IMG/VR virus record: IMGVR_UViG_3300020160_000328
Location: 33,778-97,777 of that record
Length of the DNA: 64,000 nt
Direction: 5' to 3' (one strand)
From: a virus
Both the position numbers and the translations under genes were made by a program. Of this stretch, positions 20,293-31,328 are shown piece by piece. Positions within the stretch are counted from its first letter, which is position 1; the number at the start of each line of letters is the position of its first letter. The notes beneath the pieces are model-generated. The model did not search any database. It was not told where the DNA came from and worked only from the letters and a program-made list of their open reading frames with translations.

Positions 20293-20460
20293 ATGTATAG
20301 ATTTCACATATCATATAAAGACCTTGAGAAGAATGATAAATTCTTAAGAGGTGCTAATGTTATTCTTCAAGAAGATAATATTATAGAAGCATTGCGTACA
20401 TTTCAAAATGAGTATCATAACACAGAGATTCAAGGAGTCTTAAGATCAATTGTAGAGTAA
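20293..20460 (+). CDS. Small ORF upstream of the AAA+ ATPase gene
   Basis: 55 codons from ATG 20,293 (MYRFHISYKDLEKNDKF...) to TAA 20,458-20,460, with the ATPase ATG overlapping the final base. Helical and charged, codon use like its neighbours, and coupled to the next gene, so probably real. No family recognised. Confidence 0.5.
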   Translation: MYRFHISYKDLEKNDKFLRGANVILQEDNIIEALRTFQNEYHNTEIQGVLRSIVE

Positions 20461-21791
20461 TGCACGAAGAAAATAAATACGAAGTAGCAGAAGTAATTGA
20501 AGATAAGGGAACAATAGTACCTGACTTTGATTTAGATAGATTAGCTAAAGACATTGATGATGTCTTTCAAAAGCAATTAGAAAGAAAAATAAGTGAACTT
20601 AGATTAGATTCTAATAAATTGTTACATGAAGTTGATGATAAATTAACTGAACAATTTACAGGATTTAAACAAAGAGTTGACTCTATATTTCCTGATATTA
20701 AAGAAAGATTAGTAGAGGAAATACAAAGAGGTAGAACTATTATTGTTTTACCTAGTACACAAGAAATTAATGTACAACATATGGATCATCCTGTAACTGA
20801 AGGTGCTATTAAATCACTACAGTTACAAAGAAAACTTATGTTAGTAGGTCCAGCAGGAACAGGTAAGACTACAATGGTAGAGAAAATAGCAAAATCATTA
20901 GATATTGCATTTTATAAATACTCTTGTTCTAGAGATTCATCTGTACATGATTTATTAGGTTATAAACAACCAACTTCAGAAACATATTTAGAAACAACAT
21001 TTCTAAATGCTTATGAAAATGGTGGTATATTCCTTGTAGATGAATATGATGCAATGTCTGGAGATATGGCTCTATTCTTTAATGGTGTAGCAGATAATTC
21101 TAAATTCATATCTATTCCTCATAGAGATACTAAACCACAAGCAGAGAAACACAAAGACTTTTATTTAGTTATGTGTGGTAATACTTGGGGTAAAGGTTCT
21201 ACTGATTATTCAGGTAGAGATTTTCAAGATATGGCTCTAATGGATAGATTTAGATTTTGTAGACATCATGTTGGTTATCATCATTTACTTGAAAAAAAGT
21301 TTATGAAACATAATTATGAGAGTATATCAAGATTAAGATCTGCATTAGAAAATGTAGGTTCTTATTTATCTACAAGAAATGTAGAAGATATTGCTATTTT
21401 AATTGAGTGTGATGTACCATTTACTAATATATTGGATATGGTTCTTCAAGATCTTGCAGAAGATGATAAAAGAAGAATTAAAGATTCATTAAGAAGTGAA
21501 AGAGTTACAAAATCAGCACCAGTTCAAAGAGAGGTACAAGAACCACAAAGACCTAATTTTGATCCTACTTTAAATGTTAGAGATGGTCAAGGTAGAATCT
21601 TTAAGTTAACAGATTTAATGAAAGCTTATCCAGTTAATCAACCACATAGAATGGAACAATTAAAGACAAGAGATAAAGTTCTACATGGTAGATACTTAGG
21701 TATGTTAATGCAACAAAGTATACCTACATCTGGTATGGTAAGTAGTGATTGGGAGGACCATAATGGAGTTATTAGATCAAGTAGCTGGTAA
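20460..21791 (+). CDS. MoxR/CobS-like AAA+ ATPase
   Basis: 443 residues. A charged N-terminal coiled-coil region (~1-100) precedes an AAA_5-type ATPase: Walker A GPAGTGKT at 130-137, Walker B FLVDEYD at ~191-197, sensor-1 region LVMCGNTWG near 238, and a DRF arginine-finger region near 267. Such ATPases (MoxR, CobS, NorQ) remodel partners together with a CobT/NorD-like vWA protein. Here the coupled next gene could be that partner, and a vWA protein (the TROVE protein) lies in the same operon. Confidence 0.85.
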   Translation: MHEENKYEVAEVIEDKGTIVPDFDLDRLAKDIDDVFQKQLERKISELRLDSNKLLHEVDDKLTEQFTGFKQRVDSIFPDIKERLVEEIQRGRTIIVLPSTQEINVQHMDHPVTEGAIKSLQLQRKLMLVGPAGTGKTTMVEKIAKSLDIAFYKYSCSRDSSVHDLLGYKQPTSETYLETTFLNAYENGGIFLVDEYDAMSGDMALFFNGVADNSKFISIPHRDTKPQAEKHKDFYLVMCGNTWGKGSTDYSGRDFQDMALMDRFRFCRHHVGYHHLLEKKFMKHNYESISRLRSALENVGSYLSTRNVEDIAILIECDVPFTNILDMVLQDLAEDDKRRIKDSLRSERVTKSAPVQREVQEPQRPNFDPTLNVRDGQGRIFKLTDLMKAYPVNQPHRMEQLKTRDKVLHGRYLGMLMQQSIPTSGMVSSDWEDHNGVIRSSSW

Positions 21792-24261: not shown

Positions 24262-25953
24262 ATGACTAAATCTAATTCAAAATTAGCTAGTATTATAGGT
24301 GAAAAAAAGCCTAAACAAGAATTAGTAGAAGCTAAAGCTATCCCAAAACCTGATGCTAAGAATCAACAAGGATTACCTGCTTATACACAAGATATGTGGT
24401 TAAAATTACTTACAATGTTAAATACATTGAAGTTACAACCACAATATTACAGAACAGAACAGAAGACATTAAAGGAATTACAAGATCTTATTAAGCTTTG
24501 TGCTACACAAGATTTGTATTTTACTTGTCAATGTATTGTATATTCTAGATGTCTTGGAGAAGGTATGAGAACTATTTCTCATGCAGCAGCAGTATTTGTA
24601 GCTCCTTACATTTCAGGTCAAGAATACTCTAAAAGATTCTATGGACCTTGGGATAAGAAAAAGAAAAGAGGTGGATTAATCTATAGACCTGATGATATGA
24701 GTGAAATCATATCAGGATTTGTAGCTTTAAATGGTGAGTATAAAACTACCACTATTACCACAAAAGAAGGTACTTCTACTACTGTAGATATTTCAGGTAC
24801 TAAGTTAACTAATGCAATGAAGAAAGGTTTTAAAGCTGCTATTGAATCATATGATACATATAGTTTGCTTAAATACAAATCTTCATTAATTGATGTTATT
24901 AATTTAGTACATCCAAAACCTTCAGAATCTCAAGCTACTGTTAAAGTAGAAGGAGAAGATGTTTACACTATTGATGCTATTATGAGAGGTATGAATGTAC
25001 TAGCTGAAACTTGGGAAGTATCTCAAGGTGAAGCAGGTCAGATAGTAGCTAAAGCTGTAAAAGAAGGTAAACTAGATGAAACTGAAGCTAAAGAAGTATT
25101 AACTCAAGCTAAAGCTGATAATTGGGCTGAATTGTTAGATAATAACAAATTACCTATACTAGCTTGTCTAAGAAACTTAAGAAACATTCTTATTAACAAT
25201 CCTACACAGGCTACTGTTGATAAAGTATGTGCATTAGTTTCTAATCCTAAGTTAATACTTGAAGGAAAGATATTTCCTTATCAATTAGATTTATCTAATG
25301 AGATTATGCTTACTGAGTTTAATGATGGTAAAGCAAGACAAATATCACAAGCATTAGCTAAAGGATATGAACTAGCTATACCTAATCTTAAAGCTTTATT
25401 ACCAGGTGATAATGTAATCTATTTAGACCAATCAGGTTCAATGGGTACACCTATTATATTGAGTGGTAAAGATAGAAAGTATGGTAAATCTCAATGTATT
25501 GATAAAGCTGCCCTAATTGCTGCTACAATAGCTAAAGCAACTAATGCTGATATTATTGTATTTGGTTCAACTGCTAAATATGTATCTTATAATCCTAATT
25601 TAGATGTATTCACATTAGCTAAACAATTATCTTCTGCTCATATGGGTGGAACTAATTTGTCTACAGCTTGGAATGCAGCTCAAAACTCTGGTAAGAAATA
25701 TGATAGAGTATTTATCTTATCAGATAATGAAGTAAATCAAGGTAGTACATATAATGCTTATACATCTTATTTAAGAGCTGTAGGTAGTCCTTATGTATAT
25801 TCTGTAGATCTAGCTGCTTATGGTACAAATTGTATTGCAGGTGATAAAGTTAGATATTACTATGGTTATGGATTTAGTATGTTTGATGATATTGCATCAT
25901 CAGAATTTAATGCTAATTATCATATTGAGAAAGTTAAACAAGTAATTATATAA
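24262..25953 (+). CDS. rsr: Ro60 ortholog: TROVE domain plus vWA
   Basis: 563 residues. TROVE HEAT-like ring at ~40-375 with the family signatures LIDVINLVHPKP (~209-220) and KLPILACLRNLRNIL (~296-310). A vWA domain follows at ~383-560 with intact MIDAS: DQSGSMG (Asp389, Ser391, Ser393), GGTNLS and SDNE. Ro60/Rsr rings bind the free end of misfolded RNAs in the central hole and Y RNAs on the outer surface; in bacteria they work with PNPase and RNA ligases. The gene ends 1.2 kb before the tmRNA/tRNA/Y-RNA-like array. Confidence 0.88.
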   Translation: MTKSNSKLASIIGEKKPKQELVEAKAIPKPDAKNQQGLPAYTQDMWLKLLTMLNTLKLQPQYYRTEQKTLKELQDLIKLCATQDLYFTCQCIVYSRCLGEGMRTISHAAAVFVAPYISGQEYSKRFYGPWDKKKKRGGLIYRPDDMSEIISGFVALNGEYKTTTITTKEGTSTTVDISGTKLTNAMKKGFKAAIESYDTYSLLKYKSSLIDVINLVHPKPSESQATVKVEGEDVYTIDAIMRGMNVLAETWEVSQGEAGQIVAKAVKEGKLDETEAKEVLTQAKADNWAELLDNNKLPILACLRNLRNILINNPTQATVDKVCALVSNPKLILEGKIFPYQLDLSNEIMLTEFNDGKARQISQALAKGYELAIPNLKALLPGDNVIYLDQSGSMGTPIILSGKDRKYGKSQCIDKAALIAATIAKATNADIIVFGSTAKYVSYNPNLDVFTLAKQLSSAHMGGTNLSTAWNAAQNSGKKYDRVFILSDNEVNQGSTYNAYTSYLRAVGSPYVYSVDLAAYGTNCIAGDKVRYYYGYGFSMFDDIASSEFNANYHIEKVKQVII

Positions 25954-26988: not shown

Positions 26989-27192
26989 ATGGAAATAACT
27001 ATTGATAAGACCTATTTACTTAAACCTCTTATAGTTGATGTGAAAGTAGCTAGTGATGGTAAGTTAAGAGATATATTAACTTTAGTAGGACATATGTATC
27101 TATATGGTAGAATAAAAGGTAGATATAGTTATCATAAAATCCTTGATGAAGCAATTGAAGAAGAAACAAAAAGAAGAAAAACAAGGGAGTGA
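26989..27192 (+). CDS. Small leader protein of the RNA array (67 aa)
   Basis: Basic at the C terminus (EEETKRRKTRE), otherwise a compact alpha/beta protein (VDVKVASDGKLRDILTLVGHMYL). It is the first cistron behind the array promoter and ends 3 bases before the tmRNA 5' end. It could be an RNA-binding factor; no family recognised. Confidence 0.55.
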   Translation: MEITIDKTYLLKPLIVDVKVASDGKLRDILTLVGHMYLYGRIKGRYSYHKILDEAIEEETKRRKTRE

Positions 27193-27195
27193 CAT

Positions 27196-27522
27196 GGAAT
27201 TGACTACCTATTATATAGTATATAATTCAGCCTAGAGAGATAACTAGTAAAACTAAGGTGAAATAAGTAAATGGAAAAGATTCAAAACAAATCGAAGCTA
27301 ACATGACTGTAGTACATAACATCTTAAATGGTGGTGTATCAGTTAAATCAACTCAAAGAGTAGAAATGGCATTAGCAGCATAAAACTTATAGGTTAGTAA
27401 GTTCCTTAATACTTACAAAGCATACAAAAATATCTAACTTAAAGATATAAAAGAAAAGTAAGCTGTAAAAAATTATATATCTTGAAGTATGTAACACGGG
27501 AGTTCGAGTCTCCCCACTTCCA
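27196..27522 (+). ncRNA. ssrA: Phage-encoded tmRNA
   Basis: The ends form a tRNA-like domain: acceptor GGAATTG/CACTTCC (6 of 7 pairs), T arm GGGAG-TTCGAGT-CTCCC, no encoded CCA. An extended helix follows (TATATAATT with AATTATATA, CAGC with GCTG), as in tmRNA helix P2. The tag frame starts at GCT 27,297 (Ala-Asn-Met...) and ends GAA ATG GCA TTA GCA GCA TAA at 27,381-27,383: 28 residues ending in the classic ALAA degron. tmRNA rescues stalled ribosomes with SmpB and marks products for ClpXP. Confidence 0.85.
27297..27383 (+). other. tmRNA tag reading frame
   Basis: Resume codon GCT, tag beginning ANMTVVHN and ending VEMALAA, then TAA. At 28 residues it is far longer than the ~10-residue tags of most bacteria. 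Confidence 0.8.
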
Positions 27523-27534
27523 CAATATAATACA

Positions 27535-27649
27535 ATAGGGTAGTTATAGTAAACTTACTTCGTGAAATTGGTATACACATTTGTCTTAAGAACAAACTTT
27601 TGCTGGTTCAAGTCCAGCAGTAATAAATGTTTACTAACTTTCTCCCTAT
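27535..27649 (+). ncRNA. Y-RNA-like element 1 enclosing a tRNA-Leu(TAA)-like module
   Basis: Outer helix ATAGGG/CCCTAT (27,535-27,540 with 27,644-27,649), 3'-side loop ACTTTCT, inner helix TAGTAAAC/GTTTACTA (27,547-27,554 with 27,629-27,636), then TTACTTCG. The enclosed part folds as D arm, anticodon arm (loop CTTAAGA, UAA) and T arm GCTGG-TTCAAGT-CCAGC, but its would-be acceptor pairs at only 5 of 7 positions and the variable loop is far too short for tRNA-Leu. A normal tRNA-Leu(UAA) exists at 29,658, so this looks like a mimic. Confidence 0.6.
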
Positions 27650-27653
27650 AAAT

Positions 27654-27726
27654 GGTCTATAGGTCAAATGGTTAAGATATCCCACTGTCTCTGGGTATGG
27701 AAAGGGTTCGACTCCCTTATAGACTG
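27654..27726 (+). tRNA. tRNA-Asp(GTC)
   Basis: Acceptor GGTCTAT/ATAGACT, anticodon loop CTGTCTC (GTC), T arm AAGGG-TTCGACT-CCCTT, discriminator G as usual for Asp. No encoded CCA. Confidence 0.9.
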
Positions 27727-27728
27727 CA

Positions 27729-27850
27729 AATAAGAATAGTAATAATTAACTTACTTCGTGCTTTTTGGAAAGCATTTCACTTTTAATGAAACAATCAGGT
27801 TCAAATCCTGCGGGAGAGATCCCACTAGTTAATTAAATTTCTTTCTTATT
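27729..27850 (+). ncRNA. Y-RNA-like element 2 enclosing a tRNA-Lys(TTT)-like module
   Basis: Outer helix AATAAGAA/TTCTTATT (27,729-27,736 with 27,843-27,850), loop TAGTAAT opposite AAATTTCT, inner helix AATTAACT/AGTTAATT (27,744-27,751 with 27,827-27,834), then TACTTCG. Inside are a D-like arm, anticodon arm TTTCA-CTTTTAA-TGAAA and T arm CAGG-TTCAAAT-CCTG. A GNRA hairpin (GGGA-GAGA-TCCC, 27,812-27,823) sits where the acceptor strand should follow the T arm, so it is not a standard tRNA. Confidence 0.6.
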
Positions 27851-27854
27851 ATTT

Positions 27855-27926
27855 GCCAAATTAACACAATGGTAGTGTACTGCATTTGTAACGCAGAGGT
27901 TATAAGTTCGAATCTTATATTTGGCT
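27855..27926 (+). tRNA. tRNA-Thr(TGT)
   Basis: Acceptor GCCAAAT/ATTTGGC, anticodon loop TTTGTAA (TGT), T arm ATAAG-TTCGAAT-CTTAT. The anticodon stem has one A-C mismatch next to the loop. Confidence 0.88.
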
Positions 27927-27956
27927 CAATGTGTTCATTGATTTATTGGTTATAAT

Positions 27957-28030
27957 AGCTCTATAGCTCATTAGGATAGAGCAACAGATTTCTAATCTGT
28001 GGGTGGTAGGTTCGAATCCTACTAGGGCTA
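27957..28030 (+). tRNA. tRNA-Arg(TCT)
   Basis: Acceptor AGCTCTA/TAGGGCT (one wobble), anticodon stem-loop ACAGA-TTTCTAA-TCTGT (TCT), T arm GTAGG-TTCGAAT-CCTAC. Reads AGA, the main Arg codon in this genome. Confidence 0.9.
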
Positions 28031-28034
28031 CTAC

Positions 28035-28251
28035 AAGAGTGGTAAAAAATAGGTTACTTCGCAAAAATTCTATGAGAGTTCTTCTCATAAAACTTGATAC
28101 TAATGGTATCTTACTAAACACTATGAAAATTAGACAGTTAAATGGGGTAAATTTAAACAAACGAAATTTAACAAACTTTTACTAATTTAGTTATAAATTG
28201 GAACCTTTATTGGAAGGATAAACCAATAACCCTATTTTTAATTTCCCTCTT
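28035..28251 (+). ncRNA. Y-RNA-like element 3, long form
   Basis: Outer helix AAGAG/CTCTT (28,035-28,039 with 28,247-28,251), loop TGGTA opposite AATTTCC, inner helix AAAAATAGG/CCTATTTTT (28,045-28,053 with 28,231-28,239), then TTACTTCG. The ~170-nt interior has hairpins ATGAGA/TCTCAT, GATAC/GTATC, TAAATTT/AAATTTA and a TTGG/CCAA-closed CCTT/AAGG hairpin. No tRNA module and no convincing ORF. Confidence 0.6.
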
Positions 28252-28256
28252 TTTAA

Positions 28257-28342
28257 GGACTGATAGCCTAGAGGTCAGGCAGCAGACTGTTAATCTGCCC
28301 AAAGGAGCAATCCCTACATTGGTTCGAATCCAATTCAGTCTT
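28257..28342 (+). tRNA. tRNA-Asn(GTT) with unusual extended variable arm
   Basis: Acceptor GGACTGA/TCAGTCT, anticodon stem-loop GCAGA-CTGTTAA-TCTGC (GTT), T arm ATTGG-TTCGAAT-CCAAT. Instead of the normal 4-5 base variable loop there are about 19 bases containing a GGA-GCAA-TCC mini-hairpin with a GNRA loop. Asn tRNAs are class I, so the insertion is abnormal. Confidence 0.8.
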
Positions 28343-28345
28343 CAA

Positions 28346-28412
28346 AGGAATAGTAATATAAGAGTTACTTCGTAAGCTATACAAAAAATAAACTCTTATA
28401 ATTTTCTTTCCT
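28346..28412 (+). ncRNA. Y-RNA-like element 4, minimal form
   Basis: Outer helix AGGAA/TTCCT (28,346-28,350 with 28,408-28,412), loop TAGTAA (28,351-28,356) opposite ATTTTCT (28,401-28,407), inner helix TATAAGAGTT/AACTCTTATA (28,357-28,366 with 28,391-28,400), then ACTTCGTAAGC and an A-rich loop. Only ~67 nt: this shows the core motif without any inserted module. Confidence 0.7.
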
Positions 28413-28416
28413 AAAT

Positions 28417-28490
28417 GGTCTTTTAGCTCAATTGGTTAGAGCAGTCCCCTCATAAGGGAAAGGTTCCAGGTTCAAGTCCTGGGAGGACCA
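28417..28490 (+). tRNA. tRNA-Met or tRNA-Ile2 (CAT)
   Basis: Acceptor GGTCTTT/GAGGACC (two wobbles), anticodon loop CTCATAA (CAT), T arm CCAGG-TTCAAGT-CCTGG. One of two CAT tRNAs here. Since no Ile(GAT) is found, one may be the lysidine-modified AUA reader; sequence alone does not decide. Confidence 0.88.
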
Positions 28491-28491
28491 C

Positions 28492-28562
28492 AAATAGTAT
28501 ACTAAAAACAGCACTACAACAGTAATTTATATAGAGTGTGATTGTTTACTGATGTACTATTT
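28492..28562 (+). ncRNA. Self-complementary spacer RNA
   Basis: AAATAGTA (28,492-28,499) pairs with TACTATTT (28,555-28,562) and CAGTAA with TTACTG inside, giving a closed structured unit between two tRNAs. It lacks the TTACTTCG motif, so it is only a possible relative of the Y-RNA-like elements. Confidence 0.4.
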
Positions 28563-28566
28563 ATTT

Positions 28567-28637
28567 ACCTTGTTTGCATAATGGAAGTGCCATTGTTTTA
28601 CATGCAATAGGAGGTAGTTCGATTCTACCACAAGGTA
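28567..28637 (+). tRNA. tRNA-Val(TAC)
   Basis: Acceptor ACCTTGT/ACAAGGT, anticodon arm ATTGT-TTTACAT-GCAAT (TAC), T arm GGTAG-TTCGATT-CTACC. Confidence 0.88.
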
Positions 28638-28642
28638 CAAAC

Positions 28643-28713
28643 GCATCGTAGCTTATGGAAGCAACAGGTCTCCAAAACCTTGTATGGAGTAGGTTCGATT
28701 CCTACACTTTGTG
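28643..28713 (+). tRNA. tRNA-Trp(CCA)
   Basis: Anticodon loop CTCCAAA (CCA) in a CAGGT/ACCTT stem, T arm GTAGG-TTCGATT-CCTAC. The acceptor GCATCGT/ACTTTGT has two central mismatches, so it is a weak or diverging copy. Confidence 0.75.
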
Positions 28714-28718
28714 CAAAA

Positions 28719-28791
28719 GGGTCTCTGGTGTAACTGGTGTGCACGCTAGTCTGAAGAACTAGAGGATAAGGTTCGAGTCCTCGGGCTTCCA
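28719..28791 (+). tRNA. tRNA-Phe(GAA)
   Basis: Anticodon arm CTAGT-CTGAAGA-ACTAG (GAA), T loop TTCGAGT. Acceptor and T stems are imperfect (GGGTCTC with GGGCTTC, several wobbles), so boundaries are approximate. Confidence 0.78.
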
Positions 28792-28807
28792 CAAATAAAT
28801 TAAAGTT

Positions 28808-28969
28808 ATGGGTTACAAAGATGAAAATATAAAACACAGAGTAGGTGTATTAACACCTAAGAAAGGTTTTAAATGTCCTAAATGTGGGGATGATAAGATC
28901 TATACAAAAGCAAGCCTTGTTGTATGTCCTTCTTGTAAGAAGATAGTTGAAGGTAAAGATTTAAAATAA
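28808..28969 (+). CDS. Zinc-ribbon mini-protein (53 aa)
   Basis: ATG 28,808 to TAA 28,967-28,969. Two CxxC knuckles, FKCPKCGDDK and VVCPSCKK, about 20 residues apart, make a rubredoxin/zinc-ribbon fold; Lys-rich ends suggest nucleic-acid binding. It sits inside the RNA array between tRNA-Phe and tRNA-Met. Confidence 0.7.
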   Translation: MGYKDENIKHRVGVLTPKKGFKCPKCGDDKIYTKASLVVCPSCKKIVEGKDLK

Positions 28970-28976
28970 AATATAT

Positions 28977-29051
28977 TGTGGAGTGGACTGGAAGTGGTGC
29001 CAGCTCAGTCTCATAAGCTGAATTATGTGAGTTCGAGTCTCACCTCCGCAA
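28977..29051 (+). tRNA. tRNA-Met(CAT)
   Basis: Acceptor TGTGGAG/CTCCGCA, D stem CTGG/CCAG, anticodon arm TCAGT-CTCATAA-GCTGA (CAT), T arm GTGAG-TTCGAGT-CTCAC. Confidence 0.85.
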
Positions 29052-29056
29052 CAAAG

Positions 29057-29197
29057 AAGAGTAGTAAAAAGAAAGTTACTTCTATGTGGCAGACGTAGTA
29101 TAGGTTCAAATCCTGTCATACTCCCTAAAGTAATACAAATGGAGTATGTAGTGTAATTGGTTAGCACACGAAAATTACTTTCTTTATTTTCTCTCTT
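29057..29197 (+). ncRNA. Y-RNA-like element 5 with circularly permuted tRNA module
   Basis: Outer helix AAGAG/CTCTT, loop TAGTA opposite ATTTTCT, inner helix AAAGAAAGT/ACTTTCTTT (29,068-29,076 with 29,177-29,185), then TACTTC. The interior is a tRNA in permuted order: hairpin CTATG-TGGCAGA-CGTAG, T arm ATAGG-TTCAAAT-CCTGT, 3' acceptor strand CATACTCC (29,117-29,124), 16-nt linker, 5' acceptor strand GGAGTATG (29,141-29,148, all 8 pair), D arm GTGT...ACAC. Bacterial Y RNAs carry exactly such a permuted tRNA mimic opposite their Ro60-binding stem. Confidence 0.75.
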
Positions 29198-29202
29198 TAA
29201 TT

Positions 29203-29273
29203 CTAGAAACGAAGCTAGGTTTCATGCCACACTTGGACTGTGGAGTACGCAAGTTCGAATCTTGCTTTCTAGA
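29203..29273 (+). tRNA. tRNA-Pro(TGG)
   Basis: Acceptor CTAGAAA/TTTCTAG with the C1-G72 pair typical of bacterial Pro, anticodon arm CCACA-CTTGGAC-TGTGG (TGG), T arm GCAAG-TTCGAAT-CTTGC. Position 8 is C instead of T. Confidence 0.85.
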
Positions 29274-29294
29274 CTAATTTAAAACTAAACTATC

Positions 29295-29486
29295 ATGTCA
29301 AAATCAGAAACATCAAGTAAAGGTATAGGTTTTGGAGGATTATTAACAGTACTATTTATTGGTTTGAAACTTACAAATCATATTGCATGGTCTTGGTGGT
29401 GGGTATTATCTCCACTATGGTTACCTGCTGTAATAGTATTAGGAATAGTCTTAATTGCTTTAATTTTTAAAGCTGTATTAACTTAA
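29295..29486 (+). CDS. Small membrane protein inside the RNA array (63 aa)
   Basis: Polar start (MSKSETSSKG), then two hydrophobic spans (~12-30 and ~40-62) separated by a Trp-rich turn (HIAWSWWW). Small two-span proteins in phages can be holins or exclusion factors; its place among tRNA genes does not help decide. Confidence 0.55.
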   Translation: MSKSETSSKGIGFGGLLTVLFIGLKLTNHIAWSWWWVLSPLWLPAVIVLGIVLIALIFKAVLT

Positions 29487-29489
29487 TAC

Positions 29490-29564
29490 ATTCCCCTGAA
29501 GCTTTAAGGTGAAGCACATCACTTTTAATGATGGGAAGTTGGGTCAGTACCACCCAGGGGAACA
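29490..29564 (+). tRNA. tRNA-Lys(TTT) with abnormal T loop
   Basis: Anticodon arm CATCA-CTTTTAA-TGATG (TTT); acceptor ATTCCCC/GGGGAAC pairs at 6 of 7. The T stem TGGGT/ACCCA is perfect but the loop is CAGTACC in place of the nearly universal TTCRANY, so T-loop/D-loop contacts should be altered. Confidence 0.75.
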
Positions 29565-29567
29565 ATT

Positions 29568-29650
29568 GCAAGAGTGGCTTAATAACGAACTGGTATAGTA
29601 AGTAGTTTTAGAAACTACTAGCTTTGTGGGTTCAACTCCCACCTCTTGTA
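29568..29650 (+). tRNA. tRNA-Leu(TAG)
   Basis: Acceptor GCAAGAG/CTCTTGT, anticodon loop TTTAGAA (TAG) in a GTAGT/ACTAC stem, T arm GTGGG-TTCAACT-CCCAC, 83 nt. Confidence 0.85.
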
Positions 29651-29657
29651 CAACAAT

Positions 29658-29743
29658 GCCTTCATGGTGGAATGGTAGACACGAGGGACTTAAAATCCCT
29701 TCCTCAGAAATGGGGGGTGCAAGTTCGAGTCTTGCTGGAGGTA
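29658..29743 (+). tRNA. tRNA-Leu(TAA)
   Basis: Acceptor GCCTTCA/TGGAGGT, anticodon loop CTTAAAA (TAA), long class II variable arm, T arm GCAAG-TTCGAGT-CTTGC. The regular UUA reader of the array. Confidence 0.9.
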
Positions 29744-29872
29744 CAAGTATTGCAAAGATACTGATTAAAAACCTGTTCCCTGTCCTCATAACAGCTATAA
29801 GGCAGCTAGGAGTTGAATGTACATTCGGGGTTATAAAAAGTACAAGGGTAAGTTAGGGTTCTTACCAAATTT
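29744..29872 (+). other. Structured spacer between tRNA-Leu and tRNA-Ser
   Basis: Hairpins AGTAT/ATACT, the 12-base palindrome GAATGTACATTC and GGTAAG/CTTACC. CAAGGGTA at 29,843-29,850 is complementary to TACCCTTG at 29,969-29,976, so the flanks of tRNA-Ser(TGA) can pair around it, similar in plan to the Y-RNA-like units. Confidence 0.4.
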
Positions 29873-29958
29873 GGAGAGGTGTCAGAGATGGATTATTGTA
29901 TCACTCTTGAAAAGTGATGGGTGTAACAGCCCCCTGGGTTCGAATCCCAGTCTCTCCT
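29873..29958 (+). tRNA. tRNA-Ser(TGA)
   Basis: Acceptor GGAGAGG/TCTCTCC, anticodon arm ATCACT-CTTGAAA-AGTGAT (TGA), class II variable arm, T arm CTGGG-TTCGAAT-CCCAG. Confidence 0.9.
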
Positions 29959-30047
29959 CAACATCCTGTACCCTTGAATCTTTGCTTTATATGTGGATAA
30001 AGCTCCCTGTATAAACATAAAAAGAGTAAACTCGTGAGCAAGTAATA

Positions 30048-30081
30048 TTGTGGCAAACAGGATTAACTTGTGGCAAGCAGG
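30048..30081 (+). repeat. Tandem 14-mer in spacer
   Basis: TTGTGGCAAACAGG (30,048) and TTGTGGCAAGCAGG (30,068), 13 of 14 identical, in the spacer before tRNA-Ser(GCT). The same spacer holds a GGACCT/AGGTCC pairing (30,086-30,119). Confidence 0.6.
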
Positions 30082-30123
30082 TACTGGACCTGAAATAAAA
30101 GGGTAATAGAATAAGGTCCAAAT

Positions 30124-30208
30124 AGAGAGGTGGCAGAGTGGTTTATTGCACAGTCCTGCTAAGACTGCGGGTGTAAAAGCTCCAAGAGTTCGAATCTCTT
30201 ATTCTGCA
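30124..30208 (+). tRNA. tRNA-Ser(GCT), acceptor stem broken or displaced
   Basis: D arm, anticodon arm CAGTC-CTGCTAA-GACTG (GCT), class II variable arm and T arm AAGAG-TTCGAAT-CTCTT are good. The adjacent 5' strand AGAGAGG does not pair with the 3' strand ATTCTGC. A sequence 15-20 bases upstream (ATAGAAT, 30,106-30,112) pairs with it at 6 of 7 positions, as if ~17 bases were inserted after position 7. Possibly non-functional as a standard tRNA. Confidence 0.65.
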
Positions 30209-30215
30209 CATTTTT

Positions 30216-30287
30216 GCTGCGTTAGTGAAGGGGTTAACACGTATCACTTTCTATGATAAGGCATGAGTTCGAATCTCATACGCAGTA
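30216..30287 (+). tRNA. tRNA-Glu(TTC)
   Basis: Acceptor GCTGCGT/ACGCAGT, anticodon arm TATCA-CTTTCTA-TGATA (TTC), T arm ATGAG-TTCGAAT-CTCAT. Confidence 0.88.
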
Positions 30288-30289
30288 CA

Positions 30290-30367
30290 ATAACAGTAGT
30301 AAATGAAAGGTTACTTCGTAAATTTATGGTATTTAACAACACAAACTTTTCAAATCTTCTCTGTTAT
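30290..30367 (+). ncRNA. Y-RNA-like element 6, minimal form
   Basis: Outer helix ATAACAG/CTGTTAT (30,290-30,296 with 30,361-30,367), loop TAGTAAA opposite AATCTTCT, inner helix TGAAAGGTT/AACTTTTCA (30,304-30,312 with 30,344-30,352, one G-T), then ACTTCG and a small TAAAT/ATTTA hairpin. About 78 nt, like element 4. Confidence 0.7.
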
Positions 30368-30370
30368 CTT

Positions 30371-30443
30371 GGGCTTGGAGCATGACTGGATATGCACTAC
30401 ACTTGCACTGTAGATTATGTGGGTTCGAATCCCATCAGGTCCA
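30371..30443 (+). tRNA. tRNA-Ala(TGC)
   Basis: Acceptor GGGCTTG/CAGGTCC, D stem GCAT/ATGC, anticodon arm CTACA-CTTGCAC-TGTAG (TGC), T loop TTCGAAT. Confidence 0.88.
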
Positions 30444-30463
30444 CAAATTAAAACAATAATATT

Positions 30464-31228
30464 ATGACTAAAAAATTATGCGTACAACTTGGATTAAGAG
30501 AAAAAGTTGAGACAAATTTCAAGAATATGCTTGATGATATGTTCAAGAAATTTAAGAACAATCAAGGAATATTCTTTGGAGAAAGAAAAACTTATCAAGC
30601 CTTAGATGGTTTTGCTGATGAACCTACTAAAAGAGGTTTCACTAATGTACAGTCTACTGTAGGAGAGCAATTAGCTTGGATGGAAGAACACACTAAAGAC
30701 TTTATGGATGTAATCTTTAGTATTGAGAAAACAAATGCTTCAGGAGTAGTTGTAGCTGAACTAGTAGTAGATGGAGAATCTTGGGGAACTTATAGCTCAT
30801 TAGAGTTACTTAGATTAAAAACTACATTAGATAATTCTAAATATAAAGAATTATACAAAGAAATTCCTATTAGACCACAAACAGAGTTATGGGCATTATC
30901 TGATGATGAAGCTTTTACAGGTAAATTAGTGTATGAAACTCCTATTGATGAAGGTTATTCTAAAACTACAGTTAAGGAATCTTATATCTTACCTGATTTA
31001 CAACAAGGAAGACCTCCACAAGTTGCGGAGAAATCTAATCAAGTAAATATTGGTAAATATACCACTCAAAGATTTACTGGTGCTATTTCACTACAAGAAA
31101 GAGCAGTAATGCAAAGAAAATATGACACTTTATATAAAGCTGTTATAGAAGCATTAGAAAATGCAAACAATGTTGATTCATTAGAATCAGATTTAGGTAC
31201 AAAAATTATGAAATATCTTCATAATTAA
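30464..31228 (+). CDS. Uncharacterised protein embedded in the tRNA/Y-RNA array
   Basis: 254 residues, alpha/beta, no membrane segment. N-terminal helix (VETNFKNMLDDMFKKFKNN), central segments MEEHTKDFMDVIFS and LVVDGESWGTYSSLELLRLK, C-terminal KYTTQRFTGAISLQERAVMQRKYDTLYKAV. The pattern is like an uncharacterised family I recall from actinobacteria and phages (possibly DUF7873), but I am not certain. Flanked by tRNA-Ala and a permuted tRNA-like RNA, it is a candidate RNA-processing or RNA-binding partner of the array. Confidence 0.65.
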   Translation: MTKKLCVQLGLREKVETNFKNMLDDMFKKFKNNQGIFFGERKTYQALDGFADEPTKRGFTNVQSTVGEQLAWMEEHTKDFMDVIFSIEKTNASGVVVAELVVDGESWGTYSSLELLRLKTTLDNSKYKELYKEIPIRPQTELWALSDDEAFTGKLVYETPIDEGYSKTTVKESYILPDLQQGRPPQVAEKSNQVNIGKYTTQRFTGAISLQERAVMQRKYDTLYKAVIEALENANNVDSLESDLGTKIMKYLHN

Positions 31229-31328
31229 AAAATAAAGACTCTAGCTTTAGCATTAGATTTAGCACTTTGATAGCATTCGTTAGAATAAGTGTTGTGAGTC
31301 AAGCTTTAGTGTGAGCAATGTAGAAAGC

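What the first reader, a model, noticed from the sequence alone, without database searches (positions are those of the whole stretch)
27196..27522. tmRNA encoded by the phage, with a 28-residue tag
tRNA-like ends, long P2-type helix and a tag frame from GCT to ALAA-stop are all present. Phage tmRNAs are rare and this tag (ANMTVVHN...VEMALAA) is unusually long. It may keep trans-translation running during infection or redirect tagging.
Basis: partly seen in the sequence, partly recalled or inferred. Interest (0 to 1): 0.75.

Follow-up and report, generated by a model that had tools for sequence, protein, structure and literature searches.

The report
Phage tmRNA with conserved long tag
This crAss-like phage carries its own ribosome-rescue RNA (tmRNA), one of a large phage-only family whose peptide tag is about four times longer than the bacterial one and contains a conserved helical motif, so the phage probably marks stalled proteins with a signal of its own.

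Summary
It spans 27185-27522: a 7-bp acceptor with G3:U70, a T arm and a P2 helix. Rfam RF00023 aligns full length at 29.2 bits, E 5e-10, below the gathering score of 47; ARAGORN misses it. Alignment places the resume codon at GGA (27273), so the tag is 36 residues, GKDSKQIEANMTVVHNILNGGVSVKSTQRVEMALAA, not 28. Relatives occur in cultured Cellulophaga phages phi14:2 and Calle, Flavobacterium phage FpV4, and at least 119 IMG/VR stretches. Of 50 records tested, 41 carry the Crassvirales capsid protein and none SmpB. The 80 distinct tags are 24-50 residues long; 77 share Q-[VI]-x-A-N-M-x-x-V-[FH]-[SN]-[LI]-[LI], and 75 end in Ala-Ala. The core is conserved as peptide (pN/pS 0.42 in frame; 0.85 and 1.26 out of frame). 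All 41 Flavobacteriia-type host tmRNAs read carry 8-9-residue tags, and the phage 5' motif has no match in about 85,000 prokaryote genomes. Best explanation: a phage tmRNA using host SmpB that adds a bipartite tag, a helical recognition motif plus a C-terminal degron. What reads the motif is unknown.

The parts
27185..27522 (+). tmRNA gene (ssrA-like), 338 nt to the discriminator A; CCA not encoded
   Evidence: RF00023 full-length match 27185-27525, 29.2 bits, E 5e-10; ends and family alignment
27185..27191 (+). acceptor stem 5' strand GGGAGUG (with G3:U70 alanine identity wobble)
   Evidence: pairs with 27515-27521 CACUUCC; intact in 67 relatives, G3:U70 in 69/69; covariation at pairs 4-6
27498..27514 (+). 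T arm GGGAG-UUCGAGU-CUCCC
   Evidence: alignment; covarying T-stem pairs
27515..27522 (+). acceptor 3' strand CACUUCC and discriminator A
27218..27231 (+). P2 helix 5' strand GUAUAUAAUU-CAGC, pairs with 27462-27480 (GCUG ... AAUUAUAUAU)
   Evidence: sequence; inner pairs in the RNAalifold consensus
27232..27263 (+). PK1-region hairpin CUAGAGAGAUAACUAG and the phage-specific motif GAGAUAACU-N-ACUAAGGUGAA
   Evidence: same motif in >=119 IMG/VR stretches, 0 in genome contigs; hairpin stem varies with kept pairing
27273..27383 (+). tag reading frame: resume codon GGA to stop UAA, GKDSKQIEANMTVVHNILNGGVSVKSTQRVEMALAA (36 aa)
   Evidence: alignment with relatives and upstream UAAAU
27288..27326 (+). 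conserved tag core QIEANMTVVHNIL (family Q-[VI]-x-A-N-M-x-x-V-[FH]-[SN]-[LI]-[LI])
   Evidence: 77 of 80 distinct tags contain ANM with Q three residues before it; peptide-level constraint; predicted helix
27366..27380 (+). C-terminal MALAA, degron-like end
   Evidence: 75 of 80 tags end in AA
26989..27192 (+). 67-aa ORF whose stop overlaps the tmRNA 5' end by 8 nt
   Evidence: mechanical ORF, function unknown
27553..32427 (+). tRNA array directly downstream (18 ARAGORN tRNAs, 22 Rfam tRNA matches)

Best explanation
A crAss-like phage of a Bacteroidota host encodes a functional tmRNA that is charged with alanine by host AlaRS, escorted by host SmpB and EF-Tu, enters ribosomes stalled on broken or non-stop mRNA during infection, and resumes translation at GGA. 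It appends a long bipartite tag instead of the host's 9-residue GENNYALAA: an N-terminal helical recognition motif (Q[VI]xANMxxV[FH][SN][LI][LI]), a variable linker, and a hydrophobic-Ala-Ala end of the kind read by ClpXP-type proteases. Supported by sequence here: a tmRNA architecture, an alanine identity pair, and a tag core kept as peptide. Inferred: that it is transcribed and processed, uses host SmpB, and that the tag is a degradation signal whose motif is bound by a host protease adaptor or chaperone common to these hosts. A host reader is favoured because no phage protein family was found to be shared by all four phage genomes compared.
For: Full-length RF00023 match and syntenic tmRNAs in relatives at 67.8 and 34.5 bits; Calle 86.6, FpV4 58.2, phi14:2 46 bits. 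Intact acceptor and T stem in the window copy and 67 distinct relatives with G3:U70 in 69/69, covariation in both stems. Resume context UAAAU/C before GGC/GGA/GAC like host tmRNAs. 80 distinct tags with a conserved core; pN/pS 0.36 for 77 tags and 0.42 for 26 core clusters in frame, versus 0.79-0.85 and 1.07-1.26 in the other frames; 75/80 end in AA. An independent tag-profile scan of IMG/VR returned tags inside tmRNAs. Host tags short in 41/41; phage motif absent from genome contigs. No SmpB in the window's record or in 50 tmRNA-bearing records. AlphaFold helix at residues 2-19, pLDDT about 82 over the first 20 residues. No protein family shared by all of FpV4, Calle, phi14:2 and this phage at pairwise phmmer sensitivity.
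Against: No transcript, charging or tagged-peptide data. ARAGORN misses the window copy and Rfam scores it below gathering. Calle ends AVGV and three tags (L019, L047, L110) lack the ANM core, so neither tag end is universal. Degron function in Flavobacteriia was not tested, and the proposed reader of the motif is unidentified. Pairwise phmmer could miss a fast-evolving phage adaptor.
Confidence: 0.6

Rival explanations
1. Backup rescue: the phage tmRNA mainly boosts or replaces host ribosome rescue during infection (for example when nucleases or defence toxins cut mRNA), and the tag's exact sequence matters little.
For: It lies at the head of a large tRNA array; the rescue parts (tRNA-like domain, G3:U70, resume context) are the best conserved; the C-terminal AA end is kept.
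Against: The tag core is under peptide-level constraint in diverse phages and differs from the short host tags; phi14:2 carries the tmRNA with no tRNA called by ARAGORN in the 8.3 kb around it, so it is not just part of a tRNA set.
Confidence: 0.2
2. Diverted fate: the helical motif sends tagged proteins to a phage- or host-encoded partner for something other than proteolysis, or turns each tagged product into an inhibitor or effector (for example one that occupies a host protease or defence factor).
For: Conserved helix-forming motif separate from the C-terminus; C-terminal variation (AVGV, AMVA, AVAA) and variable linkers; no known domain matches.
Against: 75 of 80 tags keep Ala-Ala at the C-terminus, which fits a degron; no partner was found.
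Confidence: 0.13
3. The conserved core reflects RNA structure or an RNA-binding site rather than the peptide.
For: Nucleotides of the core are well conserved among close relatives.
Against: Third positions vary while amino acids stay (for example many Leu/Ile codons at two core columns); ratios in the other two frames are near neutral; three family members replace the core without losing the tmRNA body.
Confidence: 0.04
4. Decayed or non-functional tmRNA remnant picked up from a host.
For: Low Rfam score and no ARAGORN call for the window copy.
Against: Acceptor and T stems, alanine identity and frame are intact, and the family is large and under selection.
Confidence: 0.03

Closest known systems
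Bacterial tmRNA (ssrA), Rfam RF00023; Flavobacteriia host tmRNAs
   Same: tRNA-like domain with G3:U70, T arm, P2, message-like frame resumed at a Gly codon after a UAA-rich context, hydrophobic-Ala-Ala end
   Different: Host tags are 8-9 aa (GENNYALAA type) in 41/41 read; the phage tag is 24-50 aa with a conserved helical core, and the PK1-region motif is phage-specific in the collections searched
Other phage tmRNAs (mycobacteriophages Bxz1, Cali, Catera, Rizal, Wildcat and others; Bacillus phage G), listed in PMC4131195
   Same: tmRNA encoded by a phage
   Different: Different hosts; their records or tags could not be read here, so whether their tags are long or share a comparable motif was not tested
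tmRNA of Cellulophaga phage Calle (MT732432, PMC8776804)
   Same: Member of the same family: GNNTNAVNAQIEANMEAVNAILNLEVAVGV
   Different: Counted as a tmRNA without discussion of the tag; ARAGORN starts its tag at AQIEANM, eight codons later; it ends AVGV
Bipartite E. coli ssrA tag (AANDENY for SspB, LAA for ClpX) - established knowledge, not tested here
   Same: Two-part logic: an inner recognition segment and a C-terminal degron
   Different: Sequence and length differ; no reader was identified for the phage motif

Membership tests
tmRNA (RF00023) | tRNA-like domain: acceptor stem and T arm closing on each other | tested here: met
   7-bp acceptor plus 5-bp T stem in the window copy and 67 relatives; covariation
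tmRNA (RF00023) | Alanine identity pair G3:U70 | tested here: met
   G3:U70 in 69/69; 35/35
tmRNA (RF00023) | Covariance-model score above the curated gathering score | tested here: not met
   Window copy 29.2 vs 47 bits although full length, E 5e-10; relatives L006 67.8, Calle 86.6 and FpV4 58.2 bits pass. This is a detection threshold that the AT-rich, long-tag copy misses, not a structural requirement
tmRNA (RF00023) | Message-like frame with resume codon and stop, no start codon | tested here: met
   GGA to UAA, 36 codons; UAAAU upstream context as in relatives
tmRNA (RF00023) | P2 helix and pseudoknots | tested here: inconclusive
   P2 found (10 bp plus CAGC/GCUG); PK1-region hairpin keeps pairing through changes, but its second stem and PK2-PK4 were not resolved
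tmRNA (RF00023) | Partner SmpB | not testable with these tools
   Not encoded by the phage or by 50 tmRNA-bearing records; host SmpB assumed
tmRNA (RF00023) | Adds a tag to stalled peptides | not testable with these tools
   Needs RNA and proteome data from infected cells
Known tmRNA tag length (8-35 aa, PMC8012679) | Tag of 8-35 residues | tested here: not met
   Window tag 36 aa; family 24-50 aa, median 35

The most novel reading that the evidence does not exclude
Aquatic Crassvirales and some unrelated flavophages reprogram trans-translation: their tmRNA marks rescued proteins with a phage-specific helical motif (Q[VI]xANMxxVxx[LI][LI]) that is read by a dedicated partner, so stalled products get a fate chosen by the phage rather than the host's ssrA route.
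Probability: 0.35. Interest if true: 0.9.

Novelty: new variant of a known kind. Interest (0 to 1): 0.72.

Why it matters
tmRNA tags are usually treated as short, simple degrons. A large phage family with a long, selected, helical tag core implies an unknown reader of tagged proteins and a phage takeover of ribosome-rescue quality control. Cultured members (Cellulophaga phi14:2, Calle, phi38:1/phi40:1) make it testable now, and most copies seen here are unannotated or carry a tag read from the wrong codon.

Tried and rejected
Resume at GCT (28 aa): rejected, because the family aligns on TAAAY-GGM eight codons upstream, and those codons are open in the relatives. Independent small ORF starting at the conserved ATG of ANM: rejected as the main reading, because residues before it (Q, A, N) are equally invariant and three members lack it. 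Phage-encoded adaptor next to the tmRNA: no neighbour is common to most loci and no protein family is shared by the four phage genomes. Tag core as a known domain: no PDB match and only a Hexapep_2 row at E 0.11 in 3 members in Pfam. Tag motif within longer phage proteins: none found in the held loci. Comparison with mycobacteriophage Bxz1: record not held, and a tag recalled from memory gave no match. First script for finding the ends was too strict and was replaced. A script that printed window sequence under locus names was discarded and rerun.

Full report
What is there. ARAGORN finds 18 tRNAs but no tmRNA in the window, and Rfam at gathering thresholds lists only tRNAs. A local search gives RF00023 over its full length at 27185-27525, 29.2 bits, E 5e-10, against a gathering score of 47. 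The match corrects the 5' end to 27185: GGGAGUG pairs with CACUUCC (27515-27521) over seven base pairs with G3:U70. CCA is not encoded. P2 pairs GUAUAUAAUU-CAGC with GCUG...AAUUAUAUAU. Single-strand folding alone is not remarkable (z -1.45 on a slightly shorter stretch); the evidence is comparative.

Whose genome. G000 is a 97.8-kb virus record with a Crassvirales major capsid protein (PF23898, E 3e-146), portal and terminase. It has no SmpB. The tmRNA stands at the head of a tRNA array and 1.2 kb downstream of a Ro60/TROVE-like gene.

Relatives. Neighbour-based search gave L006 and L011 with tmRNAs in the same place, 67.8 and 34.5 bits. DNA and peptide similarity gave Flavobacterium phage FpV4 (Fipvunavirus; tag found in 29 records), Cellulophaga phage phi14:2 (Steigviridae) and Cellulophaga phages phi40:1/phi38:1/Calle (Pervagoviridae). 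Of these only the Calle isolates had it annotated as tmRNA. Of 50 records tested, 41 carry the Crassvirales capsid protein and none SmpB.

The tag. Relatives align on UAAAU/C or a close variant followed by GGC (43), GGA (24) or GAC (13). The window tag is therefore GKDSKQIEANMTVVHNILNGGVSVKSTQRVEMALAA, 36 aa. Eighty distinct tags run from 24 to 50 aa (median 35), and 75 end in Ala-Ala. A review gives 8-35 aa for known tags (PMC8012679). In 77 of 80, Q, A, N and M are invariant and V nearly so (76 of 77) in Q-[VI]-x-A-N-M-x-x-V-[FH]-[SN]-[LI]-[LI], while third codon positions vary. In-frame pN/pS is 0.36 (77 tags) or 0.42 (26 clusters at 85% nucleotide identity of the core), against 0.79-0.85 and 1.07-1.26 in the other frames. 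These are pairwise counts without a tree, so they are a guide and not a formal test. The loci were chosen by an RNA motif outside the tag, so the tag conservation is not a product of that search. The converse scan with the tag profile returned tags inside tmRNAs, including some with a divergent 5' motif. The region between core and C-terminus varies from a few to over 20 residues, so the tag has two conserved parts and a linker. AlphaFold predicts a helix over residues 2-19 (pLDDT about 82 in that part, 70.7 overall). There is no usable Pfam match and no PDB match.

Structure. The window copy and 67 relatives have intact acceptor and T stems, with G3:U70 in 69 of 69 scored. RNAalifold on 35 sequences recovers both stems, with double-sided changes in 18 of 28 predicted pairs overall. 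The ends were chosen as the best-pairing candidates in a script, which favours pairing; the Rfam match gives the same window ends independently.

Host contrast. Twelve Flavobacteriia-type genomes and 29 further genomes of one of their families all have 8-9-aa tags of the GENNYALAA type (the one odd ARAGORN call, L348, also reads GENNYALAA). The phage resume context resembles the host's, so a Bacteroidota origin followed by tag elaboration is the simplest history (inference).

Mechanism. Shown by sequence: tmRNA architecture, alanine identity, frame, peptide-level conservation of the tag. Inferred: transcription, host SmpB/AlaRS use, addition to stalled peptides, degradation through the Ala-Ala end, and a host reader of the core. 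A phage-encoded reader is not supported: no protein family is shared by FpV4, Calle, phi14:2 and this phage at pairwise phmmer sensitivity, and neighbours differ. Fast-evolving adaptors could be missed.

Literature. tmRNA is listed for a handful of phages, mostly mycobacteriophages (PMC4131195). Calle's tmRNA is only counted (PMC8776804). A survey of gut crAss-like phages has no mention of tmRNA (PMC7886860, counts). I found no description of this tag family in the searched library, which lacks most subscription papers.

Verdict. A member of the tmRNA family by structure, a new variant by its tag, widespread in Crassvirales-type phages that appear to infect Bacteroidota. The function of the tag core is open and testable in cultured phages.

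Noticed in passing
window 24262-25953: Ro60/TROVE-like protein (PF05731, vWA_Ro60) just upstream of the tmRNA; related phages L006 and L011 show sub-threshold YrlA (Y RNA-like) matches in their tRNA arrays (L011 18551-18671 42.3 bits, L006 14471-14565 34.9 bits). A phage Ro60-Y RNA pair seems possible.
   Followed up: partly
window 27237-27263: Strikingly invariant RNA motif GAGAUAACU-N-ACUAAGGUGAA in the PK1 region; its hairpin stem keeps pairing through changes, but the second pseudoknot stem could not be identified in the common form.
   Followed up: partly
window 27760-27810, 29203-29273, 29492-29562, 29568-29650, 31506-31580: tRNA-like matches by Rfam that ARAGORN does not call; some may be degenerate or unusual tRNAs.
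   Followed up: no
L013 (KC821624 3912-4519): Four small 'hypothetical protein' genes of phi14:2 (gp011-gp014) are annotated over or beside the tmRNA and are probably spurious.
   Followed up: no
L011 18726-18802: ARAGORN reports a tRNA with a CUA anticodon (called tRNA-Pyl), a possible amber suppressor, in a close relative.
   Followed up: no
window 20460-21791 and loci such as L049, L048: AAA+ ATPase (CobS/MoxR-like) in the window; in several tmRNA loci an AAA+ gene and a vWA-like gene lie a few kb upstream of the tmRNA.
   Followed up: no
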